Positions 1 to 31,601 of a stretch of DNA of 31,601 nucleotides are shown here, in pieces. The notes under the pieces were generated by a model. That model saw nothing but the letters and a program-made list of their open reading frames with translations. It was not told the origin of the DNA and did not search any database. How positions within the stretch are numbered: position 1 is the stretch's first letter; each line of letters begins with the position of its first letter. Position numbers and translations under genes: made by a program. Source of the stretch: Gracilaria vermiculophylla (Eukaryota > Rhodophyta > Florideophyceae > Gracilariales > Gracilariaceae); NCBI GenBank assembly GCA_019155205.2, contig JAHNZQ020000004.1, forward strand, positions 3,912,269-3,943,869. Direction: 5' to 3'.

Positions 1-1651
1 GTTTGTCCGAAAGTGGAGCATGGCTGCGACGAGCGGCACGGTGGGTATCTCTATAGGATTCCGCGAAACGTGCTAACTCCGTATAGGTGGTCTTTGGGTG
101 CGTGGTCAAGTGATTACGCACCCTCGCGCGTATCGAGGGAAGGAGTCCCTTGATAAACAACGACTTCAACCGCCGTTCGGAGTACAAATTTTGCACACCG
201 CAGAGCTTTCGTCCACAGCTTCTGTGAGAACTGCGTCTCGGTCATTCCGGTGTTCTGCCTATAGGTGGTGACTTCAGCATCAGCATCGGCTATCACCTCG
301 TCCGTGGCCTACCTTTTAAGGAGGAAATTGACTACCGCCGGGTACGTCGTCAAGATCTCCGTTCCAGGATCATCCACAATGGTGCTCTCCCCCGTGAGGC
401 GCGGCTGCACCAGCGAGTGCTCTTGGCCTGTGAGGTAGAACTGAAAGCACCATACGGCGGTACCTTCATGGACACCATTTCTGTTACACGCCGAACGGAA
501 GCGCGTGAGAAAATTCAACGCCGAGATGGGGTCTTCGCCTGAGAAGGAGTGCTTCTTCATTTGAATATCCACACGGCGCTGCATCTTCGTGAGTCGTTTA
601 GGGACCGACGCGTCGTAAAGTGTGGAGCGATCATTCAACCTGTAGGTGTCATAATCCACCACTTTGGCGAAGAGGTCGTTAAGCGGGACGACCTTCCTGA
701 CCCTTCTGCTCTCCTCCTTGGGAGGTGTACTGTCCTCCGAGCTGGAGCTGTTTACGGATTCAGAGTCTGAGCTTCTCTCCGAATCGGTGTCTCGCTTTCT
801 TCTTTTCTCCCTCCGTTTGTTTCGGCGTCTTTCCTTGAGGTGGTCTGGGTTGCTGACAATACCCCCGTTATTGCGATCCACCCGAGGAGTATCCTGTCCT
901 TTTCTCCTTAGGTGGAACTCTTAGCGACTGGTATCCTGTCATCCTCCGCGAGGCTTCAGGTCCAGCCGGTGCATAGAAAGATTCCTGAGGTGTCTCGTTT
1001 TCTTACGGCAGTATCCTGTCCTTCTCTGCCCGGGGTCACCTTAGGTGTAGATAGAGGGAACCTCTCCTGTACGGAAGAATAACTTTGAAACGCCGCTGCG
1101 GGGAGCAGCTGCGCGGTTTTGGAGCGAACCTCCGCACGGATAACATCTGAGATCACCTCGAGGAAAGGATCGGAATCCAGAAAAGCATCCACAGCACGGT
1201 GAGCGCTCTCTGTTGCGATTTCCTCCACAAGGGTAAGGCGGCGCGCTCCGAAGTGGGCTTCAACACCTGCAGGTAATCTCTCTACCAGCTCTTGTGAGAG
1301 CCAATCCGTAAAGCGCGGGGCCAGGGACTCCGGGAGGGAGTTAGCCTCCGGTTATTCCCGTTTCTGCAGCTCCTGAGGTGGCAGCTGCGATGCCGTGTGC
1401 GGATCTTTAAACTCCACATCGGCGTTCTCCGGAGGTGTCGCGGGGGATTCCGCTTGCCTGCGATCATGCATTCTCCTAAAGCGATTTCTGAAACGTTCCA
1501 CAGAGGAGCCAGGATTCCGAAGGAGACTTTCAGGGTCCTCCAGTGTGGCGGCCACCTCCTGGGGAGCGCTGTGCGTGCTGCGCCCACCAACGGATCCGGG
1601 TACTTGAGGATCCTGTAGGGGGCGTTCCATTGAGGGTTCCGACGGGTCCAT
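1..1651 (-). pseudogene. gag: Gag of Ty3/Gypsy (broken, partial)
   Basis: Gag forms the particle that packages element RNA. From the ATG at 1651 the reading runs through a Pro/Ser-rich, Arg-rich stretch to a TAA at 1352-1354. It continues in the same frame to about 956 (conserved segment with TDWLSQELVERLPAGVEAHF), then shifts frame and continues 881-309 and 296-114. The last part has a Lys/Arg-rich tract (KRREKRRKR), a Ser/Glu-rich acidic stretch, and a capsid-like core (FSGEDP, NFLTRFR, FYLTGQ, LWTKALRC). The order matches the right copy at 27804-29327 segment by segment. Breaks are one shared stop, at least one frameshift and a stop near 306. The zinc-knuckle region and pol lie beyond the window. 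Confidence 0.82.
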
Positions 1652-1789
1652 AGAGGAGTAAGTCGGGGGGATTTTCTTCCATTTCCAAATCATCTTAAGG
1701 GAGAATTCCACTGTTGGGGGTTGGTCGTTGCAAACTAGAACACGTTTCTGAAGCCACTTGTCCGAATCCTTTAAGAACTGTGACCTTTT

Positions 1790-1803
1790 AAGTCGGGATA
1801 CCA
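1790..1803 (-). other. Primer-binding site (reverse transcription)
   Basis: Two bases after the LTR end, the minus strand reads TGGTATCCCGACTT. A TGG start just inside the LTR is the normal form of a site that pairs with the CCA end of a tRNA primer. The right copy has TGTTCTCCCGACAT at the same place, so it has decayed there. I cannot name the tRNA. Confidence 0.55.
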
Positions 1804-1805
1804 GT

Positions 1806-2357
1806 TGTGGTACTGTCAGCCCTCCTCTCCAGGTAGTAAAGCACAATGTCCGTTAGGAGTTTTTGTTGACTCCAAAAGCGCGTGTTCCTAAAGGTGCTCT
1901 CCGGTATCCGCTGTCGTGAGCCGGGGGAGTTCTTGAAGGGGATCAGCAAACACCAAGCGGAGGGGAGGTTCACTGGGCGGAAAATGCTCCTACAGGCGCT
2001 GCTACGATGCGACCTGAGGACCGTCGGCTCAGAAACCTGAGTTGATCGACAAGAGACTCCAGCCGGAAAAGTAGATGAAGACTCAAGGGTTCTTGTCTTT
2101 ACTTCCCCAGAGGTGGAGCTCAACCGGCAAATTAAGTATCAAGCCGGGAAGACGCCTCGGCAGGTCTCGCTACTATACTAATTACCTGCATAAAATATCT
2201 AAAAGAAATTATAATTCTACCATCCCTTAATGATACTGTAGCGCACACGGGTTGGATTATGCACTACGTGGCGCCGCTAATAAAATAAGAGCCCTCCTTA
2301 GGAATATTAAACCATAAGGCCACATCACCGTATCCCCTTAGGAGCCACTGAACTACA
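1806..2357 (-). repeat. 5' LTR of left Gypsy copy
   Basis: On the minus strand it opens with TGTAGTTCAGTGGCTCC and closes with CAGTACCACA. The right copy (27098-27649) aligns along the whole length and is also 552 bp. Both have TG...CA ends, and both are followed two bases later by a TGG-type or similar primer site. A third, more diverged copy lies at 21856-22426. An AT-rich TTTAATATT about 50 bases in could be the promoter core; that part is a guess. Confidence 0.8.
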
Positions 2358-2959
2358 ACAGGAACCACTTCTTTCCAGGATGTTGAGGATATGTTGATGG
2401 TACTCTCTGCAAAATACGGCCACTCAGGAGCGCTTATCATCGTGCATATTTTAATGGCCATAAGAAAATGTACTGTTTAAATAACGCTGTCGTAATTGAT
2501 CACAACGGTTTGTTTCGGTTTGTTGCTGCAGGTTACGCGTGTTCTTTTCATGATATCTCCGTGTTACCTGACACAGATCTAGCACGCAACGGGCAGCATT
2601 ACTTTGCTGTAGATCACAATTTGCCTTATCTTGTAGAGTATCTGCTGGGTGACCCCGGGTATTTGGGACTAGAACACTTTATTTTGCGACGGATTGACGC
2701 ACGTGAGGTAGCTGGCATGGATTCAGACCCATTCATGCGAGCATTCAACAAATTGCATTCTGGATACCGGGTGAAAGTAGAGTGGGGAATTGGCGGAATG
2801 AAAATGCTTGTTAAGAGATTTCTAGATATCTGTCCCAATTGACGGTCGTCAAATGCTCTTATGTTCGAAAGTGCAGCCATCCTGACTAACGTTTTGCATC
2901 GAAGACGCCAGGACTTCAGCGTAAGTCTCCAACAACTTGAATCGATTGAGGGTGAATAG
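2358..2959 (+). pseudogene. PIF/Harbinger transposase (DDE_Tnp_4 type), C-terminal two thirds
   Basis: This nuclease-type transposase cuts and joins element ends. All three acidic residues of the RNase H-like fold are visible in order: D in GYVDGT (about 2396), D in LLGDPGYLG (about 2650), and E in RVKVEWGIGG (about 2779). Between them, NNAVVIDHNGLFRFVAAGY and FHDISVL are family hallmarks. The frame has an in-frame TGA at 2384-2386 just before the DGT block and another at 2840-2842 (DICPN-stop-RSSNALM). It then runs on as a normal C-terminus (AAILTNVLHRRRQDF) to TAG 2957-2959. The helix-turn-helix N-terminus is missing because of the Gypsy insertion. No ATG is needed: 2468 is internal. Confidence 0.85.
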
Positions 2960-2964
2960 CATGG

Positions 2965-4077
2965 CTAACAGTGTACGAACGCTTTCATCTTTTCTTTAAA
3001 CTCTTCGCCTGTTAAGACTTGTTGGTCCCGCAGTAGTATCAGACGCTTCATCTTTCTGTCCACTTCCTCACTCTCGAGCATCTTGGTCTTAATATAACGA
3101 AGCTCTTGGCGGTTTCAGACGTCTTTTGAATGCAGTTTCGTCTGCTCCAGCACAGCACATGTCAAGTCTGAAGGCTTTGTCTCAATCACGTCGATCATAC
3201 TTGAAACGGCATCGACCGCATTCTGCATCAACTCCCGTTTACTCTGACGTTGCGTTTTATTGTTTATCTCATCGAGGCGGCTCTTGCTTGCGACTTTTTC
3301 GGTCGCTGAAGCGATATCGGAGACTAAAGAGTCATTTACGAGATGTTCTCTAAACTCAGACATTTTTTTCTTGGTGAATGTGTCAGTGTTCTTGAGATGT
3401 TGCATTAAATCATTGTCTTGCGATAAAATGTTTTGAGAGGCTTGTGGGTCAGCTGGGCCGGTTGATACTTCTCCCAGAGCAGATCGTAGTGCATACTGCA
3501 AGGTTCTTTTCTGTGGCAGATCCCTTTCATTTAACACAGTGCCCGTTGCCGCGTGTTGGATCTTTGTAGCCTCCAAAAAGTCTTTGTAGACTGTTTTACA
3601 CATTAGAGCCGGTATGTTTTGTTGAACAGCACGCTTTCTCCCCTTGCAGTAGTAATCAAAATATTTGCCATAGATGCATGCATGAGATGCGAATACTTCA
3701 GCACCAACCACTCTCCTTTTCTTCTGTAAACCCCTGACCGTGTAGTCGACAGAGCCAGTAGTCTCAAAATCTTTTGGATCTTGCTCCACAAGTCACCGGA
3801 TACCAATCCGGGCGTTGCTGTGAGATGCCTTCTTGTTTTCTTCCAAACCGATGCTCTCATTGCAGTTCATAGACCTTCCAGCGCCTTCTTCGTCATTTAG
3901 ATAGCCGGTACAACTTTTAAGGTTTCTTCCAACATCACTCTCTAGGATTTTTCTTCTCATCACAATGGTCACTATCAAAGTCTTGTCACTCAGAGTTTTT
4001 GGGTATGGCATTTTGGATGTAGCCTCAGTAGCACGCCAACCACGATCAATGTGTTCGCATGCGTGTCGAAGAGGCAT
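2965..4077 (-). pseudogene. Second gene of the Harbinger element (unknown DNA-binding partner?)
   Basis: From ATG at 4077 one frame runs 370 codons to TAG 2965-2967. It is broken only by TGA at 3793-3795 and TGA at 3115-3117; both could be former CGA (Arg) codons. The stretch after the second stop is still protein-like (TKMLESEEVDRKMKRL, LLRDQQVLTGEEFKEKMKAF). This ending of charged helix, LL and G.EF resembles short C-terminal oligomerisation tails, by inference only. The body is charged and probably helical, with a KKRR basic spot near 3720. Harbinger elements normally carry a Myb/SANT-like partner here, but I see no tryptophan spacing typical of SANT, so the role rests on position. It ends 5 bp from the transposase stop. 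Confidence 0.6.
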
Positions 4078-6405: not shown

Positions 6406-8223
6406 TGGAGTAGGCACAACTGAGTGGACGAGCAAGAACGAGGTCCATAAGACCTCTGTTATCAGCGTTTGTTGCAATTCCATCCCTCTCCACCTTCGTT
6501 TGGCGTTCGAAAGAGCGGATTTTGCTCTGCGTAGGTGGAGAACAGCGTAACTGCCGGCAGAATTAACTGCTACTTCTTCGATAGCCTTGAAAAGAGAACG
6601 AATATCGCTCTCCGCTGAAAGAGCCGCAACAATGCCATTGTTCTCATCACTATCTTACTGAACAACACCGTCCCCGTCACCGTTAACATCTTCCGCCGCC
6701 ATCAAAAAAGCATCCTCAACCAATGAATCCTTTACGGCGTCATCTTCCTCAATTACTAACCACCTCTCAATATCTTCCACGCCTATTTCTTCGGCCAATT
6801 GATCCCTAATGGGATCTCTCTCGTCAGATAAAATGGAAAGCTTCTTTAAAGGCTTTACCATCTCCTAAACACTAGATGCTTGTTTCGTGCTCTGCGACAT
6901 TTTGCCTTCTACTGCGTTAATTTTTGGGGCATAATGCGCATGGAGAACATGAGATTTTCCCAAACACCTGGAAATTGTCGTAGACGAAACATGATCCCAG
7001 CTCTTAGAAACAATTCGACAAACGTCTAACATAAGCGGATCATACTCGTCTGCAAGCCCTCGCATTACCCGCTTTGCACTTGCAGACTCACGACTTGATT
7101 GTCTGGTCTCAATTCCTGAGACAATCTCACGAAAAGGAAGTCACCGATACCTCGTCTTCCATGCTGCAATAATTCCAAAATCCATTGGTTGATATATTGA
7201 AGTACAGCTGGGAGGCAATGTCAGCAATTCTATTTGATGTCTAATATCCATGATATTTGTTCCATGTGGGCCGCAGTTGTCCATTAGAAGCACACATTTC
7301 CGGGATGTCAACCTTCGCACAAACGGTAGAAATGTATCCAGAGACCATTTGCGAAACGTAACAGTGTCCGACCATGCGTTTTGCTGATATAGGTACGGTA
7401 CAGATGGGACCCCGAGGCGAAAGCATCTTAGATTCCTGGCCGTGCCGATAACAGCCATCGGAAGTTTGGCGGAACCGTCAGCATTGGTGCACACGTATGC
7501 CGTGCTGCGATCTTTTGCTTTCATTGCCTTTGTACCACGAACCGACTTACGACATTCACCAGTAGCGATATACTTCCGACGAGGTAGGAGCTTATAGAAA
7601 AGACCGGTTTCGTCAACATTGAGTATGCAGTCCATGTCATACTCTTTCAGACGTTCTCGTAGAGGTCTCATATTTGCGGCAACACTCTGCGCGGAAGCAC
7701 TGCCGGCTTCGCCACATAAAGATACTGAGCGCAGTGCATGTCGTTTGACAAACTTGGAAACCCATCCGTTTGTTGCACGGAATTGAAGCAGCTGCTGCTT
7801 CTCTATCGCTGGTATACTGCTAGACAAAAGTGTTTCTCGAATATTCAGAACTCATTGCTGTAGAATGGCTTGCGAGACAGGTATTTTGGCGCAGCGCGCG
7901 ACATGTATGAATGTGAGAAGGATAGTTTCTATGATCTGAAAAGGCAGGGATCTCACTGTTCCTGTTAATAGTTAAAGTGAGTTTGCATTTTTTTGATCAA
8001 CTAAACACGCAGTTCTGCGTTTGATATTGGTGACGGTGCGCCAAGAAATGGAGAAACGAGACAAGATAACGCCTGCATTGTACCCCTGCCTCAGTAGACG
8101 GTAAATCGCAATATATTGCCTGAGAATGAAGCGAGTACGCTTTTGGATTGGTTTGGAGGTAGAGCTTACTATGCTTGACCTGCCTAGGGAGTCTTGAGAT
8201 CGAAAATGCTGTGGGGTCGTGCA
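6400..8223 (-). pseudogene. pogo/Tigger transposase (CENP-B/jerky relative)
   Basis: One minus-strand frame spans the gene with no frameshift, broken only by stops: TAA 7972-7974, TGA 7852-7854, TGA 7141-7143, TAG 6865-6867, TAA 6655-6657. Order: psq-like helix-turn-helix (IAIYRLLRQGYNAGVI, SWRTVTNIKRR), CENP-B-type second helix-turn-helix (VSQAILQQ-stop-VLNIRE, NGWVSKFVKRH), then the DDE core. The core has D in NVDETGLFYKLLPRR, D in CVLLMDNCGPH and D in SIYQPMDFGII, all kept. The C-terminus is acidic, then basic (LRRAKSALSNAKRRW). No start ATG is seen in this frame, so 8223 is an approximate limit; the true start may have been lost. About 600 codons is within family range. Confidence 0.87.
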
Positions 8224-8331: not shown

Positions 8332-9078
8332 TGTAGAGTAATGCCCGGTATCAAGGAGTTTTGTGGCTTTGATTGATAACCTCGTTGAGGACTGGTACAG
8401 TATTTTTATTATAGTAATGACGCCGCATGGTGCAGATGGTACATTTGGACCACAGAATGGTTGGTAGAGGTGTGCCACGAATTGTGGGTATTTTGAATAT
8501 CTTAAGAACCCAATTTTGGGGAGCATGACACTGTGCACTGCACAGTGTGCCAGTACTTAGCGCACTGGCCCCGCGGCCGGCGCGCACAGTAAAGTTCCCC
8601 ACCGAGGGTTTTGGTCCTAAGCTTCTACGCCTTCGGACGCTCTCTACTCCTCATCGGAGGGACTGCCCGTTGCATACGGTAGCTTAGCCGCCTTGCGTGT
8701 TACAGAACCCAGCTTTATGAGTGTTTCTATCGTTGTCACGTTCGTCCTCAAACGAGGTACATTTCTCCGGATCTCCGGATAAATCTACGACCCTTTCCTT
8801 TTCCCCTTACGCCCCGTGGCACTGCCATGCTCGCGCGACCCTCTACCAGAGCAGGCCCGCGTTCCCCATTAGCTTGGCTCAAACCTCGCTAGAGGATTGC
8901 ACCCGGTTCACCGGTTCTTCGCTCTACGCCCTATGCGCTAGTCGCGAAGGTGACGCCCCGGTGTATACCTGGCTAGTTGGGCCTCACTTGAGGGTGCTCT
9001 GTTCGCTGCGGCGTTTCATAGAGAGGGAGGTTCCGAACGCGTTCGTTGTCGTTTCCCATTTTGGGGCATTGCACTACA
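8332..9078 (+). repeat. 5' LTR (747 bp)
   Basis: Begins TGTAGAGTAATGCCCGG and ends GCATTGCACTACA, so the ends form the inverted pair TGTAG/CTACA. It aligns end to end with 18653-19398. By eye they are a little over 90% identical, with transitions clearly outnumbering transversions. Tiny length differences lie near 8400 and 8510. Confidence 0.92.
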
Positions 9079-9316: not shown

Positions 9317-11096
9317 ATGTCTCGGGCCTCAGATCTGGTCCGTGACAACCGAAAGGTTCCGCAACCTCCGTTGGACATCCCTCAGGATGAGATGACACCC
9401 GCTGTTGCGGCGTCTCGCCCTGTACAGAGAAGTGGCGATGACCCCAAGATCAGAAGCCTGGAGTGCCAACTCCGTCATTTGTAGACTGCCCATGACACGG
9501 TCGTCGTAGTCTTCCGGGAACTCCGGGCAGCCGTCGTAGAACACCTTATGAGAGAAATCACTGAGGTTCTCCGCACAAAACTCCATAATGGAGACTTTTG
9601 GTGAGCCCGCCACATTTGTGGAAAACGTCGACGAGCAGTTTCGCCGAGTCTGCGCCAATCTCGAGACGGCGGAACAACCCATTCTCATGGACTACCTGGA
9701 CACTCCGGCAGCCCACTCGCAACGCGCTCGGGATACCGGAAAGGACAAACGCCCCAAGAATCGGAAGGACCCACATGGGGATAGTGACAATGACTAATCA
9801 TCGTCAGAGTCCTCCCGAAACCGCTCGGATAATTCCTATCCGTCGGATTCGGACCCCGACCATGACGATCGCAGGCGTATTTCCCGCTCTAAGCGGTCAA
9901 CTGCCACGTATGGCGCGGTAAGTACCCGACCACGGGGAAAATCCCACAATGGGTTGGAGGAGCTAAAGCCGACGAACCGCCTCTATCGGAAGCTCCTTTC
10001 ATACCAGTTCTACCGACGTGAAGATTTCTCGCTGGATCGAACGCCCCATAAAACGGGGAAGGTGCGCAACTGCATCAAACATATGTAGTTGTCGCTACGC
10101 AACCACCAGTTTAGTGGAGAAGACCCAATATTGGTGCTCGACCTACTCGCGCGCTTCGTCGCGGAAGCCGATGTACTCGGCATGAATGAAGACAAAGCCT
10201 TCGTTGCACTGCGCTGTTTCTTAAGCGGAGTTGCGGAGGACCAGTACAACTCAGTACGTGGTTCTTCGCGTGCCTCCGAAGTAGGAGTGACGTGCTGGCC
10301 GGAGGTGGTGCAGTACCTGTTGCGCTCGTACGCAACAAACACCTCCATCCAGAACACAATCCCCGCCCTGATGGAAACCCGCCAACGCCCTGAAGAGGGA
10401 GAGACCGAATACTCGGTACGGCTCAACAAAGCCTTCCACCCCTGTGAGAATATCTACCGCACTGGGGAACGCTGTACGATGTTCATCGATGGACCCATCC
10501 CGGCAATCCGGACTCTCGTGGCCCGTCGCCGGAAGACAAACCGAAGTCGACGTACCTCGTGTTGGTGCAGTACGCACAAGCAGAGGGGGATGCGCTCCGC
10601 GCACGAGGCCTCAAAGAACGGGGGAAGTCCACCAAAGCGTTGTTGGTGAGCACCGGGTCATCCATCGCATCCCCGTTGTCGGGAGTGGAGCCCCAGTTGG
10701 GGTACGATAACGTTCAGCTCCCGCAAAAACGGCGCACTATCTGTACCTACTACGTACCTGCCATCTACCGCGGACACCTTGTCCGAAACGGCCAAAACTG
10801 GGTCCGCGCTGTACGTCAACGCACCGCACGTACCGTATTCGAACGGGATATTCCGCACTCAATGGCCTGGATGGAAGGCCTCTCGTCCCGCAGTGGGCCT
10901 CCCGGATAACCGGCGAATTCACCCTCAACAGAGGAGATCGGCTCTCATCTGTCACCTGTGCTATATGCATGGCCACACCTCTCCACAATGTCTCTTCTCA
11001 CTGAGAGACATGGGGAAGATGGTGGTGAACTATGAGACCCTCACCCCGAAAGAGAAGGGAACGGTACCCATCGCGTCGTACCGCCGAGCCAAGTAA
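9317..11096 (+). pseudogene. gag: Gag of the 11-kb element
   Basis: Starts at ATG 9317 (SRASDLVRDNRKVPQPP). It runs through TAG 9482-9484, a frameshift at about 9585, TAA 9795-9797 and TAG 10086-10088, shifts frame near 10530 and again near 10780, and ends at TAA 11094-11096. Parts in order: N-terminal helices (SLECQLRHL, FRELRAAVVEHLMREI), a Ser/Asp-rich charged stretch, a capsid core (HQFSGEDPILVLDLLARF, EADVLGMNEDKAF, FLSGVAEDQY), and a zinc knuckle CHLCYMHGHTSPQC at 10950-10991. The knuckle is a perfect CX2CX4HX4C nucleic-acid-binding motif. About 590 codons, normal for chromovirus-type Gag. The role is particle assembly and RNA packaging. Confidence 0.85.
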
Positions 11097-15601: not shown

Positions 15602-16566
15602 TTGGAGCAACAAGCGAGGCTGATCGTTCCGCCGACCTCATCGAGGGATGCACCGCGCTCATTGCCTGCCGTCACGAACCGCGTGGCAACGAACCCACAT
15701 ACCGCAGACCGCGGCAACTCCCCACAATGGGTTGGACAAGTCATGGAAGGCGCTCGGGTTGTTGCGTCAGAAACGGCCAAACCTTCAAAGGGAACGTTTA
15801 ACGAGAGCGCGAAACGGCAACCAGTACTCGAAAGCCTTGGGCCAAACGATAGGAAGCCGCCGGAGATTCCCGAAAATCGCTGCGTGAACAACAACTAACC
15901 TCCCTCGTCAAGGGTCAAAATGCCCCAAGTATCTGGGATGAATAGGCCACAGCCACGTGGACAACCCCTGCCACCATCAAGACTGGAGGAAGTTCGTCAC
16001 CTTGCAGTGAGGGGTGAGTACAGCGAAGTGCAAGGTCCCCACCTGTATCGGATGTCTCGGACTTCGCTGCAGCCACTTTGCCCAAGCCGGAATCGTCACC
16101 GGGGAGCGCGAACGCGCAGCTGCTGGCGCATCATTTCGGCACGCTAACGAACCCAATCCGGAAAGTGACACCCACGCACGTAGAACAGCCGACACCACCC
16201 ACACAGGGGATGTCAACCCGGGAGCGGTAAACGCCGCCGAGGCAGAGCTACGAATACGACGTACGCCCCGTATGGAAAGCGGAGTGGGTTCACTCGGCTC
16301 AGGGCGCCGCGTCCCGCGCATTTGCAATCCCTGCACAGGGAGACTCCCGTTTTGGGGCGGTAGCAACAACCACGGAAGGCCGGAATGTCTACTCACAGGA
16401 GTACGTAGTGGAGCGCTTCGTCGGCCACTCCTGGGATCAGGACGGTATACTGCAGTACTGCGTACGTTGGTACGGCTATCCCCCTGAAAGGGATACTTCC
16501 GAACCAATCGAGCACCTTCCCAGATCAAAACTGGTACAGTACCACCGCCATGCGGGAACAGCATAA
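15602..16566 (+). pseudogene. pol: C-terminal tail of pol with chromodomain
   Basis: A low-complexity, charged linker (frames shift at least once) leads to a chromodomain at about 16390-16560: YVVERFVGHSWDQDG, YCVRWYGYPPERDTSEPIEH, LPRSKLVQYHRH, ending at TAA 16564-16566. Aromatic residues of the methyl-lysine cage region (Y at the start, W/Y in RWYGYP) are in place. In chromoviruses this domain steers integration into marked heterochromatin. The family fit is W-x-G-x-x-x-x-x-x-T-W-E-P, here T-S-E-P, so one cage-side tryptophan is serine. Confidence 0.85.
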
Positions 16567-16710: not shown

Positions 16711-18617
16711 TTAACCACTGCCCCAAGTTGGGGAAGGACCCCCGCCAAAGCGGTTCGCGGGCGCATCCCGCATCGCGGAGACGTCACCCCCCGCCTCGTC
16801 GGAGCTCAAACCGGAAGTGCAGAGGAACCTCGCGATGATCTTGGCCTCGCCGGGGCTGCTCGCGTTCGAGCCCGGCGTTGCCGCGCCCGCCACATAACCA
16901 GCCGAGCTGGGTGCAGCACCCCCTCCATGGGAGCCGACTGCTGTTGCAGGCATACATTCGCTTGGGACATTCGGCGCGACATCATCCACCCCAGATGGGA
17001 AATTTCAACTAACACCGCATGCGGAGGCCATATCCATCGCATATGGCGCTTCACCACCCGAGTCGAAATCGTTATCCACCATTGGATCACTACCCAGATA
17101 TGCTTGTTGGTAGTCGTCCGAATCAACGAACCGAATGTGGTGCCCTTCGGGAATCCGGCGTGGCGCTTCGCAAATATCTCCCGCCTCTGCAGCCGTCAGT
17201 TCCCTATACTCCCAGGGGTCGAAGAACACATAATCGCCCGCGAGTGCGGTATAGCGCCCGAGACCGGGACCTGAAAAAGCGGCCGCTTGGTCGCACTTGC
17301 TCTGCGTAATGGGGACCTCACTACAATCTACTCCGTCGATGAAGTCGAGGAGAGTCAACAGCACCCCAGCGTTCACCTCACCCCCAAGGGAAACACGCAG
17401 ATCCAGACTTCGTATCGCCGCCCGTACTCGGGAAGGGATATACCACAAGCGATATTGGTCGTACGCCTCAGCAAGGGTATATGCCGCGACGCGGGCAGCC
17501 CTCTCCGTGACCACCACAGACCACTACCCCGCGTGGGGATCCGTCATAAATACCCTTGTCTGGATCGCCAACGCCGTTCGAAACGGATGAAGTGCTGCAG
17601 AAAGTTAAACCGATAGTCTCGTGAAAGATATCTGAACTCTGCCCGAAGAATCGGTCGATCCCAAGATAGGGCTTTTTGCCGAGCAATCGGGATACGGTGC
17701 CATGAAAATTTCTCTAACGCGGCTAAGCCCTCACAGTACGCGACCTCTGCGCGTGTGCAGTACAACTCGATGTCAAACCGGAAGCCCGGAGGTATCGGCG
17801 TCTCAAACGGCGCGCGATTCTGCCGCTGATACGCGATAGTAATAAGTGTCGTATGTGCGGAGGCTACGCTTTCCCGGGGAAGCCGACGGATGTGATGAAC
17901 CGAAATGGACATCCGGTGACGTTAGTCCCACGAGGTCGTAAAGATATCGGGGAGATTTCTGGGCACGTTGTCCGATGTGTCCGCGTATGCGGAGGTAAAA
18001 CCCTAATCGAGGACAGCGACCTGGTGGAACCCCGGTGCCAAGTGCAAACGCATCGCATGCCAAGTAGTGTTTGGGTTTAGCCCTACGAGAGAGTCAAACC
18101 TTGGCCACTCATGGCCTCCCGCCGCCGAATGAGCCGGGGGGAGAAGGTGGGCCGCAAGCCAGCTCTCCATCGGCATTGGGTACGGAACCCCGAACGGAGA
18201 GGGTACGAAGCCTGGCAGTTGCGCGGCGACGGTTTGAGGCGCGTGTACGGATGCTCCGAGGTCGGGTTGAGCTGCGTTTGCACTGGTCCTGATACCAGGT
18301 TGGCGACCACGACCCGCTGACGGGAGTGGCACGGACCGGAACCCGGGGAAGTATCCTTGTAGAGGTTTGTTTTGCGGCTGACTCGGAGACATTTCCCTCG
18401 TAGTGAGGTCGATTACTGGAGTGGCCGGGGTGTGTGACGGTGTAAGACTCGCAGAGACGGTGGAACGATCAGAAGGTGAGGATGGAGACGACGGTGGTGC
18501 AAAGATGGTCGGATCGGATGTCGCGTTGAAACGGTAGTTGCCCTTTGTGGGGAGATTAACCGGAGGACCCGGGGCAGTTGCTCTTTTACATTGCATCTTC
18601 GCCGGTGCTCTGCCCAT
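16711..18617 (-). pseudogene. Antisense gene of the LTR element (unknown protein)
   Basis: Runs against pol from ATG 18617, 36 bases inside the 3' LTR border, to a stop at 16711, 145 bases past the end of pol. About 635 codons. Frame 18617-17544 has stops at 18003-18005 and 17922-17924; a shift near 17540 leads to frame 17517-16711 with one stop at 17005-17007. The N-terminal third is Pro/Ser/Thr-rich with TPVIDLT, which looks like a SUMO-interaction motif. The middle (HTTLITIAYQRQNRAPFE, FRFDIELYCTRAEVAYCEGL) is globular-looking. The C-terminal third has DYVFFDPWEYREL and an acidic FVDSDDYQQAYLGSD, then an Ala/Gly-rich tail. I recognise no family. Antisense genes at this place are known from plant Tat-lineage Gypsy elements (for example Grande). 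No sequence link to those is claimed. Confidence 0.65.
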
Positions 18618-18637: not shown

Positions 18638-18652
18638 TTGGGGAGAGGGAGG
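18638..18652 (+). other. Polypurine tract
   Basis: Reads TTGGGGAGAGGGAGG directly against the TG of the 3' LTR. A purine run at this exact place primes plus-strand DNA synthesis in LTR retrotransposons. Confidence 0.8.
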
Positions 18653-19398
18653 TGTAGAGCAACGCCCGGTATCGGGGAATTTCGTGGCTTTGGTTGATAA
18701 CCCCGTTGGGGATTGGTACAGTATTTTATGATATTAATGGCGCCGCATGGTGCAGATGGTACATTTGGGCCACAGAATGGTTGGTAGAGGTGTGCCACGA
18801 ATTGTGGGAATTTTGCATATCTTTAGAACCCATTTTTGGGATGCATGACACTGTGAACTGCACAGTGTGCCAGTACTTAGCGCACTGGCCCCGCGGCCGA
18901 CGCGCACAGTAAAGTTCCCCACCAAGAGTCTTGGTCTATAGCTTCCACGCCTTCGGACGCTCTCTACTTTTCATCGGAGGGACTACCCGTTGCACACGGT
19001 AGCTTAGCAGCCTTGCGTGTTACAGAACCCAACTTTGTGAGTGTTTCTATCGTTGTGGCGTTCGTCCTCGGACGAGGTACATTTCTCCGGATCTCCGGAT
19101 AAATCTACGACCCATCCCTTTTCCCCTTACACCCCGTGGCACTGCCACGCTCGTGCGACCCGCTACCAGAGCAGGCCCGCGTTTCCCATTATCTGGGCTC
19201 GCACCTCGCTAGAGGATTGCACCCGGTTCACCGGTTCTCCGCTCTACGCCCTCTGCGCTAGTCGCGAAGGTGACGCTCCGGTGTACACCTGGCTATTTAT
19301 GCCTCACTTGAGGGTGCTCTGTTTGTTGCGGCGTTTCATAGAGAGGGAGGTTCCGAACGCGTTCGTTGTCTTTTCCCTTTTTGTGGCATTGCACTACA
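18653..19398 (+). repeat. 3' LTR (746 bp)
   Basis: Direct repeat of 8332-9078, with the same TGTAGAG start and GCACTACA end. It is followed by CTCTACTC, the interrupted pogo 5' end. The antisense gene begins just outside its left edge, so a minus-strand promoter, if any, would lie in this LTR. Confidence 0.92.
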
Positions 19399-26536: not shown

Positions 26537-27097
26537 CTACTTAGTTTCCAGATTTGGACCACACTGTAAGAATGAAAGGGAGGATGCAGAGGTCTGCACC
26601 AAAACTTCGGCCTGACTCCTTGCTGATTTTTCGATACTCTTCACCACCCGGAGCTTATTCGCATGCGTCTCTTTTGGAAGGCTACCCACTTGACGCGCAA
26701 TAAGATCCGGTCCAGGAGACGCAGATATGATACGTATAAGAGCGGCATTGTGAAATGTCACCTCCCGCAGGCATCGGTATATTGCACGTACATACCAGTC
26801 CACAAAGGCAGTGCCCAATATGCATTGTGCTGCCACGTTGATCTCCACTAGAAACCACATCTTCCCCTGTAAGGAGCCCAGCCAGAGATGCAAAGGAAGT
26901 GCGCTGAGGATGTTTAATGAACGATGCGACGCGTCTCCTACCGTAGAGAGCTTGCCAGTCCTCAAGAAGCCGAGAACAGATCATAGGAGCACGTCAAAGT
27001 GCACCAGGTTTTGGCCATCTCCAGTATCTAGGATAGCGTGCACCGTTATGGAAACGAGTGAAGAACATCCTATAATGGCGAACACCTTATAGTTCTT
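26537..27097 (-). pseudogene. pol: Aspartic protease region (middle copy), cut by insertion
   Basis: From 27097 the minus strand reads NYKVFAIIG, then AILDTGDGQNLVHFDVLL with the active-site D-T-G kept (about 27010-27040), a TGA, then SVLGFLRTGKLSTV and the partner motif CILGTAFVDWYVRAIY. The right copy has ENYKVFASIG at the same point, so the break lies inside the protease; upstream coding is missing because the right copy's LTR begins at 27098. Confidence 0.83.
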
Positions 27098-27649
27098 GTA
27101 GTACAGTGGCTCCTAAGGAAATAGGGTGGGTTGACCTTGTGGTATAATATTCCTAAGGAGGGCTCGTATTTTATTAGCTGGGCCACGTGGTGCATAATTC
27201 CGCCCACGTGCACTACAGTATCCTTGAGAGACGGTAGAATTATTATTTATTTTAGTTAATTTGTGCAGGTAATTAGTACAGTAGCGAGACCTGCCAAGGC
27301 GGGCTCCCGGCTTGATACTTAATATGCCGGTTGAGCTCCACCTCTGGGAAAGTAAAGACAAGCACCCTTGAGTCTTCATCTACTTTTCCGGTTGGAGTCT
27401 CTTGTCGATCAACGCAGGTTTCTAAGCCGCCGATCCCCAGGTCGCATCATAGCAGCGCCTGTAGGAGCATTGTCCGCCCAGTGAACCTCCCCCTCCACTT
27501 GGTTTTTGCGGATCCCCTTTCAGAATTCTCCCGGCTCGCGACAGCGGATACCGGAGACCACCTTTAGGAATACGCGCCTTTGGAGTCAACAAAAACTTCT
27601 AACGGACATTGTGCTCAATTACCTCGAGAAGAGGGCGACCAGTACCACA
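27098..27649 (+). repeat. 5' LTR of right copy (552 bp)
   Basis: Begins TGTAGTACAGTGGCTCCTAA, ends CAGTACCACA. Same length and ends as the left copy (1806-2357, opposite strand). Possible promoter core GGTATAATATT near 27141. The base before it belongs to the protease of the middle element. Confidence 0.85.
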
Positions 27650-27651
27650 AC

Positions 27652-27665
27652 TGTTCTCCCGACAT
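27652..27665 (+). other. Primer-binding site (degenerate)
   Basis: TGTTCTCCCGACAT, two bases after the LTR, matches TGGTATCCCGACTT of the left copy at 10 of 14 positions. The TGG start has been lost here. Confidence 0.4.
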
Positions 27666-27803
27666 TGTTCGTCACAGTTCCTAAAGGATTCCCACAAGTC
27701 GCAGCAGAACCGTGTTCTAGTTTGCAACGAACAGCCCCCAACAGTGGAATTCTTCCTTGAGGTGATTCGGAAGTGAAGCAAATCACCCCCGACCTACTCC
27801 TCT

Positions 27804-29883
27804 ATGAACCCGTCAGAACCTCCAATGGAAACCCCCCTACAGGATCGTCAAGCAACCGACTCCATCGGTGGGCGCAGCACGCGCACCGCTCCCCAGGAGA
27901 TGGCCGCCACACGGGAAGACCCTGGAAGACTCCTTCAGAATCCTGGCTCCTCTGTGGAGCGTTTCAGGAATCGCTTTAGGAGAATGCATGATCGGAGGCA
28001 AGCGGAATCCCCCGCGACACCTCCGGAGAACGCCGACGTGGAGGTTGAAAATCCGCACACGGCATCGCAACCACCACCTCAGGAGCTGCAGGGACGGGAA
28101 TAACTGGAGGCTAACTCCCTCCTGGAGTCCCTGGCCCCGCGCCTTACGGATTGGCTCTCACAAGAGCTGGTCGAGAGATTACCTGCAGGTGTTGAAGCCC
28201 ACTTCGGAGCTCGTCGCCACACCCTTGTGGAGTAAATCGCAATGGAGAGCGCTCACCATGCTGTGGATGCTTTGCTGGATTCCGATTCCTTCCTTGAGGT
28301 GATCTCAGATGTTCTCCGTGCGGGGGTTCGCTCCAAAACCGCGCATCTGCTCCCCGCAGCGGCTTTTCAAAGTTATTCATCCGTACAGGAGAGGTTCCCT
28401 CTATCATCACCTAAGGTGACTCCGGGCAGAGAAGGACAGGATACTGCCACCCCATACGCCAGAGGAGGAAAGGATACTGTCGTGGGGAAACGGGACCACC
28501 TGAGGAATCTTGCTATGCACCGCCTTGACCTGATGCCTTGCGGTAGGGGACCGGACACCGGTCGCAAAGAAGTTCACCTAAGGAGAAAAGGACTGGATAC
28601 TCCTCGAGCAGATCGCGATAACGGGGGTATCGTCAGCAACCCAGACCACCTTGAGGAAATACGACGAAAGAAACGGAGGGAGAAAAGAAGAAAGCGACAC
28701 AACGATTTGGAGAGAAGCTCAGACTTCGAATCCGTGAACACCTCCAGCTCGGAGGACGGTATACCTCCCAAGGAGAAGAGCAGAAGGGTCAGGAAGGTCG
28801 TCCCACTTAGCGACCTTTTTGCCAAAGTGGTGGATTATGACACCTACAGGTTGAATAATCGCTCCACACTTTACGACGCATCGGTCACTAAACTACTTAC
28901 GAAGATGCAGCGCCATATGGAGATTAAAACAAAGAAGCACCCCTTCTCCGGCGAAGATCCCATCTGGGAGTTGAATTTTCTTACGCGCTTCCGTTTAGGG
29001 TATAATACCAATGATGTCCATGAAGGTGCCGCCGTATGGTGCTTTCAGTTCTACCTCACAGGCCAAGCGCACTCGCTGGTGCAGCCGCGCCTCACGGGGG
29101 AGAGCAACATTGTGGATGATCCTGGAAAGGAGATCTTGACGACGTACCCGGAGGTAGTCAATTTCCTCCTTAAAAGGTACGCGACGGACGAGGTGATAGC
29201 CGATGCTGATGCTGAAGTCACCTCCTATAGGCAGAACACCGGAATGACCGAGACGGAGTTCTCACAGAAGCTGTGGACGAAGGCCCTACGGTGTGGGAAT
29301 GTGTACTCCGAACGGCGGTTGAAGTAATTTTTTGTCGAGGAACTCCTTCCTTCCATACGCACGAGGGAGCGTAATCACCTAACGACGCACCCAAGAGACC
29401 ACCTACACGGAGCTAGCGCGTTTCGCGGAATCCTATGGGGATACCCACCGTGCCGCTCGCCGCAGCCATGCCCCCCTTTCGGAAAAACCGGCGACCTCAA
29501 GGACCCGTAGGGCATCCGCCTTGACGTTGGACTTCAGCACCTCGAAGGAGGTCAACGAGCACACGGTCGTAGGAGAGCAAGAGGGCCTTGCCCTCACATA
29601 CGCCTCCTTCCAGAGACCACCGTCTAGGACGAGGACTCCTTCGTCTCTCACTTCGTACGCCTCGACAGGAACCTACAGGAGCGTACGATTTGAGAACCCT
29701 CGAGGCTACCCACCGCCTTGCAGGATTTGCTTGTCACGAGAGCCCGTACACTGTGCGACTCTCACCCCGGCAATGAGGGCGGCCATCCTGCAGGAAAGAG
29801 AGAAAAACTTCCAGGACCTGGAGGACACACCAACGGTGAGCGGAAGTTATCGAACCGCGAATCGCGACATCCGCTCCCCTTAA
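27804..29883 (+). pseudogene. gag: Gag of right copy
   Basis: ATG 27804 opens a Pro/Arg-rich stretch (NPGSSVERFRNRFRRMHDRR) to TAA 28101-28103. The same frame goes on to TAA 28233-28235, and then from ATG 28242 to 29327 without a break. That part has helices around SFLEVISDVLRAGVRS, a region with repeated G-K-D-T / G-L-D-T-like turns, a strongly basic tract, an acidic Ser-rich tract, and the capsid core (FSGEDPIWELNFLTRFR, FYLTGQ, LWTKALRCGNVYSERR). A frameshift near 29290 leads to frame 29521-29883 with a reduced zinc-knuckle-like CRICLSREPVHC (about 29721). Lengths agree with the left copy, which shares the first TAA. Confidence 0.85.
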
Positions 29884-30832
29884 GGAAATTGCAGTTACCG
29901 TGCTCCACCGGGAATGCAGCCTGTCCCACTATCACTGCAACCCGCAACGCAGGTGCCGGTGTCCCAGCCGGTTGCACTTCCAGGAAACACGTCGCATCGC
30001 GATGCACAACCGCAGAAGCCGTCCCTGCCTGGAACCCTGCCCCTCTCCAACCAGAAAAACCCTCAGAGCCACGCGTAGAGGCTCCGCGTGGCTCTCCAAC
30101 ATCGAGCCTAAGCTCCACGGAGGTCGCCTCTAGAAAAGGGGGAGAGGCCATCTGCTCCGTTGACCCAGAATCGACGGGCCCCCCAATCCCGTTGGACCCC
30201 TTTGACACCTTTGAGGACTCTGTTTGCACGCTCCACCGTGAGAATTACAAGGTCTTCGCCTCTATAGGATATTTCCCGCTCACCTCCACCACTGTGTGCG
30301 CTATCTTCGATACCAGAGCTGGCCCCAATCTGATGCACGCCGACGTGCTCCCGCGGTCTGTTCTCGGCTTCTTGAGGACTGGAAAGCTCCCGACAGTGCG
30401 TGATGCGTCACGACGCGCATTGACCATCCTTGGCGCACTTTCCCTATACCTCCAGTTGGGCTCCTTACAGGTGAAGGTGTGGTTCCTCGTGGCGACCAAC
30501 TTGGCCGTACAATGCATATTGGGCACTTTCTTTGTGGATCGATATGTACGTGCAATCTACCCACACCTGCAGAAGGTGACGTTTTAAGACGCTGCCCCTG
30601 TAGGTATTGTGTCCGCATCTCCAAGACCGGACGCGAACACGCGTCAAGTGGGTACCCTTCCGAAGAATACGCAGTCGAATAAGCTCCACGTGGTGAAGAG
30701 CACCAAAATACCCGCGAGGAGTCAGGCCGAAGTCTGGGTGCAGACCTCTGCATCTGGCCTTCATTCCTACAGGAGAGTCCACACCTGACGACGAAGCAGC
30801 ATTTCATGATGGCGAACGGTGTTATGGAAGTA
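29884..30832 (+). pseudogene. pol: Protease region of pol (right copy)
   Basis: The frame used (open 29718-30587) shows a Pro/Ser-rich linker, then ENYKVFASIGYFP, the active-site box AIFDTRAGPNLM and the partner motif CILGTFFVDRYVRAIY. The glycine of the D-T-G triplet is Arg (AGA 30315-30317), which fits a G-to-A change and would kill the enzyme. TAA at 30585-30587, then in-frame linker (ARSQAEVWVQTSAS) to about 30790, where frames shift before RT. The middle copy reads on through the equivalent place. Confidence 0.83.
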
Positions 30833-31601
30833 ATACCGAACATCCTCTTCAGGGTCGTGCTCGCTAACCTCAAAGAGTCGCCGTTACGGCTCCAGAAAGG
30901 AATTGTTGTCGGACTGGTACTCCCCGCCCCTGCAGGACAAGCTCATCTTCCACAAGCGGAAGACTTTGCGAACCGCGATGCTATCGCCACCATGGAGGCG
31001 GAAGCGACTTCCTCGGCTCCAGAGGAAGAGAGTCCTGCGACCTGGCAGAAAAAGCTCCAATTTGGCAATGAATTCGAAGGGTATCGCCATAGGATAGTGG
31101 AGATGCTATCCGCTTTTAAGGACATTTGGTTTGGTCGCCTGGGTCAGGTCATCCTGGCCAAGCACAGGATCCAGCTCACGCCGGATGCAAAGCCGTTACA
31201 TCAACTCCCGAGGAGGGCCGGACCCCACGCGCGCGACTTCGAACGCGATGAGGTTCACCGTATGCTGGAGAAGGGCGTTATAGAGCCTTCCAATTCCGAA
31301 TGGGTCTCCCCGGTGGTGTTTGTCAAGAAGAAGGATGGCTCCCTACGGTTCTGTATTGACTACAGGCGCCTTAACGAGGTGACGGTACGCGACTCGTACC
31401 CGATACCGCGGATGGATGAATGTATCGACTCCTTAGGCGATGCGTCCGTTTTCTCCACGCTGGATGCCAATAGTGGCTACTGGCAGATAGAGATGGACGA
31501 CTCCGATAAGGATAAGACAACGTTCACCTCGCACTGTGGGATCTTCAGATTCCTAAGGATGCCATTCGGGTTGAAGAATGCACCCGCTACGTTCCAACGA
31601 G
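30833..31601 (+). CDS. pol: Reverse transcriptase of right copy (partial, open to window end)
   Basis: 256 codons with no stop. First ATG 30991; upstream frame is still pol-like (VVLANLKESPLRLQKG). RT blocks: VILAKHRIQLTPDAKP, RRAGPHARDFERDEVHRML, KGVIEPSNSEWVSPVVFVKK, RFCIDYRRLNEVTV, RDSYPIPRMDECIDSLGD, STLDANSGYWQIEM (first catalytic Asp present), RMPFGLKNAPATFQR. The window ends before the YXDD box, so I cannot tell whether the enzyme is intact. Upstream of 30833 the frame is closed by a stop at 30830-30832. Confidence 0.92.
   Translation, partial: MPNILFRVVLANLKESPLRLQKGIVVGLVLPAPAGQAHLPQAEDFANRDAIATMEAEATSSAPEEESPATWQKKLQFGNEFEGYRHRIVEMLSAFKDIWFGRLGQVILAKHRIQLTPDAKPLHQLPRRAGPHARDFERDEVHRMLEKGVIEPSNSEWVSPVVFVKKKDGSLRFCIDYRRLNEVTVRDSYPIPRMDECIDSLGDASVFSTLDANSGYWQIEMDDSDKDKTTFTSHCGIFRFLRMPFGLKNAPATFQR

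What the first reader, a model, noticed from the sequence alone, without database searches (positions are those of the whole stretch)
16711..18617. A long antisense gene between pol and the 3' LTR of a chromovirus-like element
A coding-like minus-strand frame of about 635 codons starts 36 bases from the 3' LTR and ends just beyond pol. It has a Pro/Ser-rich head with a possible SUMO-interaction motif (VIDLT), a compact middle and an acidic segment. It holds few breaks (about five), in line with pol, as if it had been under selection. Antisense genes at this place are known in plant Tat-lineage Gypsy elements; one in a chromodomain-bearing element of what looks like a microbial eukaryote would be unusual. 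An LTR-driven antisense product could act on silencing, Gag expression or copy number; that is inference.
Basis: partly seen in the sequence, partly recalled or inferred. Interest (0 to 1): 0.78.

Follow-up and report, generated by a model that had tools for sequence, protein, structure and literature searches.

The report
Red-algal retrotransposon with antisense protein gene
A jumping element in a red alga carries, on its opposite strand, a broken copy of a real protein gene that stays open in sister copies, shows the marks of natural selection, and resembled no known protein family in the searches made here.

Summary
Between the chromodomain end of pol and the 3' LTR of a Gypsy-type element lies a minus-strand frame with about five breaks (four in-frame stops and a ~154-bp deletion). 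Sister copies keep it open: 722 codons stop to stop in one, 627 in another subfamily ~46% identical; simulated sequences of those copies reached at most 467 and 423. Between subfamilies dN/dS is 0.17-0.23 with synonymous sites saturated. The genome holds about 75 loci of the family. 46 of 75 have a listed chromodomain hit within 3 kb, all 46 convergent; 29 have none listed in a capped search. Thirteen database relatives were found; the two named are from Gracilariopsis chorda. A tree puts one of these with the window's subfamily, apart from the genome's other subfamily, so the gene is old. No significant Pfam, NCBIfam, PHROGs, PDB or fold match was found. Antisense genes at this place are already known in plant Retand/Grande and fungal Boty elements, so this is a new variant of a known kind with its own protein family. 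Function is unproven; I favour a trans-acting, probably nuclear accessory protein. The SUMO-type motif is limited to one subfamily.

The parts
16711..18596 (-). Antisense gene (broken copy), from ATG 18596-18594 to stop TAA 16713-16711
   Evidence: ATG and TAA read directly; homology to the open frame of L011 in two blocks, 77% and 80% identical
17547..17548 (.). Place of a ~154-bp deletion in the window copy, with change of frame
   Evidence: 10 of 10 other copies first fetched have about 152-174 more bases here; frame change
16399..16566 (+). Chromodomain at the end of pol, ending in a stop at 16566
   Evidence: 55 residues then stop; Pfam Chromo over cut-off in the sister copies L020 and L012; 89-100% matches to this piece in the genome
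11603..16566 (+). pol-like region (RT, RNase H, integrase, chromodomain), broken; limits approximate
   Evidence: pieces; RVT_1, RT_RNaseH, Integrase_H2C2, rve and Chromo in sister copies
9598..11096 (+). Region between 5' LTR and pol, presumably gag; broken, no Pfam match to the one piece tested
   Evidence: position and ORFs; piece 10089-10646 gave no Pfam family; inference
8332..9078 (+). 5' LTR (TGTAG...CTACA)
18653..19398 (+). 3' LTR (TGTAG...CTACA), 686 of 746 aligned bases identical to the 5' LTR
18640..18652 (+). Polypurine tract-like run next to the 3' LTR
   Evidence: read from the sequence printed; role inferred

Best explanation
The stretch is a decayed copy of an accessory protein gene carried antisense, between pol and the 3' LTR, by a lineage of chromodomain-bearing Gypsy-type retrotransposons of a red alga. 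Shown by computation: an open frame in sister copies, protein-level constraint, convergent placement next to the chromodomain, relatives in at least one other red alga, and a predicted folded core between disordered arms. Inferred: it is transcribed from a promoter in or beside the 3' LTR, because only 56 bases, which include the polypurine run, separate the ATG from the LTR. Most likely, but not shown: the protein (P/S-rich head, mainly helical core of about 350 residues, acidic linker, short C-terminal helices) acts in trans, probably in the nucleus, to help the element, for instance by regulating sense transcription or weakening chromatin silencing, as proposed for antisense proteins of Grande/Retand.
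For: Open frames of 722 and 627 codons in two subfamilies ~46% identical in protein; null maxima 467 and 423 of 2000 simulations each. dN/dS 0.17-0.23 in the four pairs between subfamilies. Differences by antisense codon position 235/219/396 of 608 codons. L011-L019 pN/pS 0.37-0.47 in residues 201-600 against 0.65-0.79 outside. Chromodomain hit within 3 kb of 46 of 75 loci, 46 of 46 convergent; 5 of 5 distant loci read have the chromodomain just before it. RT matches of at least 50% identity: 20 of 48 have the gene listed downstream; below 50%: 1 of 39, as for a gene belonging to one lineage. Thirteen database relatives. Tree split P0002+P0003 with the window's subfamily, support 100/99, apart from L019's group. 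AF2 model of P0008: pLDDT about 75-96 over most of residues 91-444, pTM 0.63.
Against: No transcript, protein or localisation data. Nothing points to a biochemical activity: no domain or fold match. A nuclear role is analogy: a simple basic-cluster search found NLS-like runs in only 3 of 17 proteins (L016, P0005, P0007). Close copies give dN/dS 0.42-0.99, i.e. mostly decay after insertion. In L011-L016 the core is not clearly more constrained than the ends (0.25-0.71). dS between subfamilies is saturated (2.5-3.0), so the ratios are rough. 29 of 75 loci have no chromodomain hit in the capped lists.
Confidence: 0.5

Rival explanations
1. The protein is a particle or envelope-like component, or helps intracellular movement, and only its orientation is unusual.
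For: Position between pol and 3' LTR, where env-like genes lie in other elements (PMC7264820, read); large size and a helical core.
Against: Antisense, whereas env-like genes are sense. Highest 19-residue hydropathy is under 1.6 in 15 of 17 proteins (P0009 1.86, P0014 1.78), so no consistent membrane span. No Foldseek match in PDB or BFVD for model 1, nor in PDB for model 2.
Confidence: 0.12
2. The antisense RNA, not the protein, is the product: it makes double-stranded RNA with the genomic RNA and limits copy number.
For: Such a role is discussed for antisense transcripts of retroelements (PMC7264820, read); it can coexist with a protein.
Against: Constraint is on antisense codons (third positions vary most; dN/dS 0.17-0.23), and relatives at 36-45% protein identity keep long frames. 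RNA action alone needs neither.
Confidence: 0.1
3. The protein restrains its own element (copy-number control, self-limitation in trans), like restriction by truncated Gag in Ty1 (recalled).
For: Moderate copy number of the lineage (about 75 loci of the gene); made from the integrated copy.
Against: No similarity to Gag was tested or seen; persistence across lineages is easier to explain if the gene helps.
Confidence: 0.13
4. A host gene or the gene of another mobile element, captured once by an ancestor and now kept as in the best explanation, or merely carried.
For: Origin unknown; lineage-limited presence fits a single gain.
Against: No relative outside the family was found in the protein search, which scored only about 8000 word-sharing candidates. 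Mere carriage does not fit the constraint.
Confidence: 0.1
5. Chance open frame or a shadow of plus-strand coding.
For: The window's own pieces (240, 172, 125 codons) are within chance; G+C 58-62% lengthens chance frames.
Against: Sister frames of 722 and 627 codons exceed every simulation. Plus-strand frames of the region in the 16 copies have at least 6 stops each, except none lower (longest plus run 310). The protein is conserved to 36% identity in other sources.
Confidence: 0.02

Closest known systems
Antisense additional ORFs of plant Retand / Grande / RIRE2 elements (Tat-type Gypsy)
   Same: Gene antisense to gag-pol, between pol and 3' LTR, kept in most copies; Grande gene23 is nuclear and has its own promoter (PMC7264820 parts 1-2 read; PMC11963269 abstract and passages).
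   Different: Retand is described as non-chromovirus and restricted to flowering plants; its usual domain TRP28 (PF04195) was not matched by any of 14 proteins here at E up to 1. Here the host is a red alga and pol ends in a chromodomain.
Boty of Botrytis cinerea, antisense gene brtn
   Same: Antisense additional gene between pol and 3' LTR of a non-plant LTR element (PMC7264820 read; PMC8365987 passages, which cite Zhao et al. 2011).
   Different: Different kingdom; the brtn protein was not compared (sequence not at hand), so homology is untested.
Retroviral antisense genes such as HBZ of HTLV-1
   Same: Antisense gene near the 3' end, antisense promoter in the 3' LTR, nuclear regulator (PMC11963269 and PMC7264820 passages).
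   Different: No similarity claimed or tested; the promoter here is inferred only.
Chromodomain-bearing Gypsy elements / chromoviruses
   Same: RT, RNase H, integrase and C-terminal chromodomain.
   Different: Carries the antisense gene; whether RT phylogeny puts it in the chromovirus clade was not tested. In brown algae, chromodomain-bearing Gypsy lineages fall outside chromoviruses (PMC12477816, passages).

Membership tests
Ty3/Gypsy-type LTR retrotransposon | Two LTRs flanking RT, RNase H, then integrase | tested here: met
   LTR pair in the window; RVT_1, RT_RNaseH, Integrase_H2C2 in L012 and rve in L020, sister copies. Order read. No matching 5-bp target duplication (CCCTG / CTCTA).
Chromovirus | Chromodomain at the C-terminus of integrase | tested here: met
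   PF00385 over cut-off in L020 and L012 pieces (26.6 and 32.9 against 25.1 bits)
Chromovirus | RT phylogeny within the chromovirus clade | not tested
   No reference RT set at hand
Retand-type element with TRP28 antisense protein | Antisense ORF between pol and 3' LTR | tested here: met
Retand-type element with TRP28 antisense protein | TRP28 domain (PF04195) in the antisense protein | tested here: not met
   Pfam-A scan of 14 family members, E up to 1: not among the 2 weak families listed; nor in 10 database relatives at E up to 0.1
Retand-type element with TRP28 antisense protein | Non-chromovirus pol in a flowering plant | tested here: not met
   Chromodomain present; genome has phycobilisome genes
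Boty/brtn-type element | Antisense protein homologous to brtn | not tested
env-like additional ORF | Sense orientation and membrane-spanning segment | tested here: not met
   Antisense in 46 of 46 loci with a chromodomain neighbour; hydropathy under 1.6 in 15 of 17 proteins (threshold recalled)

The most novel reading that the evidence does not exclude
Red-algal Gypsy elements have independently evolved a Tat/HBZ-like strategy: a trans-acting antisense accessory protein, with a new fold, expressed from the 3' LTR of integrated copies and working with the chromodomain integrase, for example to hold off chromatin silencing. The family is spread across florideophyte or wider red-algal lineages.
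Probability: 0.25. Interest if true: 0.82.

Novelty: new variant of a known kind. Interest (0 to 1): 0.58.

Why it matters
Antisense proteins between pol and the 3' LTR have been reported for plant Tat-type elements and one fungal element, always without a known function. A third, apparently independent case, in chromodomain-bearing elements of red algae and with its own conserved, foldable protein, would suggest that this position and orientation are repeatedly useful to retroelements. It also gives a compact, conserved domain on which the question 'what do antisense retroelement proteins do?' can be tested, and a marker gene that annotation now files as hypothetical protein (for example BWQ96_03215).

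Tried and rejected

A possible domesticated host gene at C21:2319968 (967-codon frame, 60% to P0008) was rejected: the frame joins a fragment of the gene to copia-like RT sequence (the copia label is my reading, no search).

Comparison with pol: C-terminal pol pieces between subfamilies give pN/pS 0.60-0.64 against 0.51 for the whole antisense frame (pN 0.372, pS 0.736); pieces and linkers differ, so this is only rough.

Literature: nine searches. No listed title or abstract start describes an antisense gene in a red-algal element; most listed papers were not opened, and subscription papers and preprints are not held. Seen: PMC7264820 parts 1-2 of 3 (part 3, references, not read); PMC11963269 abstract and passages; PMC12477816 and PMC8365987 passages; Zhao et al. 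2011 and Gomez-Orte et al. 2013 only as citations.

Row choices: one search used all 150 rows and 24 rows picked by eye as not already. One search used 81 of the 93 rows (the 12 weakest chromodomain rows dropped) and all 87 rows; it gave 33 of 75 loci with a pol neighbour within 6.5 kb, 32 convergent and 1 (C4:1352487) with a pol hit on the other side, which has its own convergent chromodomain. The 75 loci come from 83 rows, merged when closer than 1.5 kb on one strand.

Full report
What is there. The window lies on contig C17 of a 44.8-Mb genome in 27 contigs. The element runs from the 5' LTR (8332-9078) to the 3' LTR (18653-19398); the LTRs begin TGTAG and end CTACA and share 686 of 746 aligned bases, and the flanking five bases (CCCTG, CTCTA) do not match. 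Plus-strand pieces of pol end in a chromodomain with a stop at 16566. In sister copies Pfam finds RVT_1, RT_RNaseH, Integrase_H2C2, rve and Chromo, each over its cut-off.

Is it a gene? In the window it is broken: four in-frame stops (five by the slightly different blocks) and a ~154-bp deletion near 17547 that changes the frame; 10 of 10 other copies first fetched have about 152-174 more bases there. Its own pieces are no longer than chance. Other copies settle the matter. L011 is open for 722 codons stop to stop, L013 for 687, L016 for 614, and L019, of another subfamily, for 627. In 2000 Markov-1 simulations each of the L011 and L019 regions the longest run in six frames was 467 and 423. 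Other copies are broken to varying degrees (for example L015, L017, L018 and L023 have no run over 263 there).

Selection. Pairs between the two subfamilies give dN/dS 0.17, 0.19, 0.20 and 0.23, with synonymous sites saturated (dS 2.5-3.0); three pairs against L016 give 0.39-0.43; pairs of close copies give 0.42-0.99. This is the pattern of a gene constrained while the lineage was active, then decaying after insertion. Differences fall mostly on third antisense codon positions (235/219/396). In L011-L019 the middle (residues 201-600) is more constrained (pN/pS 0.37-0.47) than the ends (0.65-0.79); L011-L016 does not show this clearly (0.25-0.71).

Placement and spread. tblastn of three family members finds about 75 merged loci. 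A chromodomain match was listed within 3 kb of 46; in 46 of 46 it is convergent, on the side of the antisense stop. For 29 none was listed, in lists capped at 150 rows. In 5 of 5 distant loci that I read, the chromodomain lies just before the gene. RT matches at 50% identity or more have the gene listed downstream in 20 of 48, weaker ones in 1 of 39, which suggests that it belongs to one lineage of the chromodomain elements in this genome and not to its sister lineage; the lists are capped, so these are lower bounds.

Relatives. Protein searches, which scored only about 8000 word-sharing candidates each, gave 13 relatives. Two carry names, both hypothetical proteins of the red alga Gracilariopsis chorda (BWQ96_03215, BWQ96_10156); the others are from unnamed sources. 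In a maximum-likelihood tree P0003 (G. chorda) and P0002 group with the window's subfamily (100/99), apart from the L019 subfamily of the same genome. So the subfamilies are probably older than the split of the hosts, unless elements moved between species. The host is probably a red alga: its genome holds phycobilisome genes (17 matches) and light-harvesting proteins (10 matches), and the named relatives are red-algal. The species was not identified.

The protein. A P/S-rich, disordered head; a mainly helical core; an acidic linker; a short conserved helical end. Alphafold2 with 15 sequences gave pTM 0.53 for P0003 and 0.63 for P0008, where most of residues 91-444 have pLDDT of about 75-96, with dips near 228-236 and 390-410. 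No significant match to solved or viral structures or known families. No consistent membrane span: 15 of 17 proteins stay under a hydropathy of 1.6. The VIDLT motif is a feature of the window's subfamily.

How it may work. With 56 bases between ATG and LTR, including the polypurine run that the element needs, an antisense promoter should lie in the 3' LTR or beyond; this is inference. Reviews report that maize Grande's antisense protein is nuclear and has its own promoter, and suggest regulatory roles (PMC7264820, read). By analogy I favour a nuclear accessory protein acting in trans, about one chance in two for the statement as a whole; that it is a protein-coding gene under past selection I hold near certain. 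Self-restraint, a particle role and an RNA-only role are the main rivals.

Novelty. The kind, an antisense gene between pol and 3' LTR, is known from plants and from fungal Boty. The protein family, the red-algal host and the link with a chromodomain pol appear new in the nine searches made, which do not cover subscription papers or preprints. I file it as a new variant of a known kind.

Noticed in passing
G000:C17:3006506-3176520 and C20 (L026, L025): Phycobilisome genes occur twice: on C20, which looks like a plastid contig, and inside C17, the window's own large contig; the two pieces compared are 79% identical over 2182 bases with different G+C (28% and 32%). This suggests a second plastid-like stretch: chimeric scaffold, contaminant or plastid-to-nucleus insertion.
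   Followed up: partly
L024 (G000:C21:2319968-2320573 and neighbourhood): A fragment of the antisense gene runs on in one open frame into copia-like RT sequence, as if another element had inserted (copia by eye).
   Followed up: partly
window 1-2358 and 27096-31601: Long inverted near-copies (89-90%) of another element with a gag-like ORF flank the region on both sides.
   Followed up: no
window 7141-7827 (-) and 2468-2842 (+): ORFs that look by eye like a pogo/Tigger-type and a Harbinger-type transposase (no search made).
   Followed up: no
L011 about 255-3084: The 5' side of this copy is very G+C-rich, arginine-rich in translation, and followed by an N gap, so its pol is missing or replaced.
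   Followed up: no
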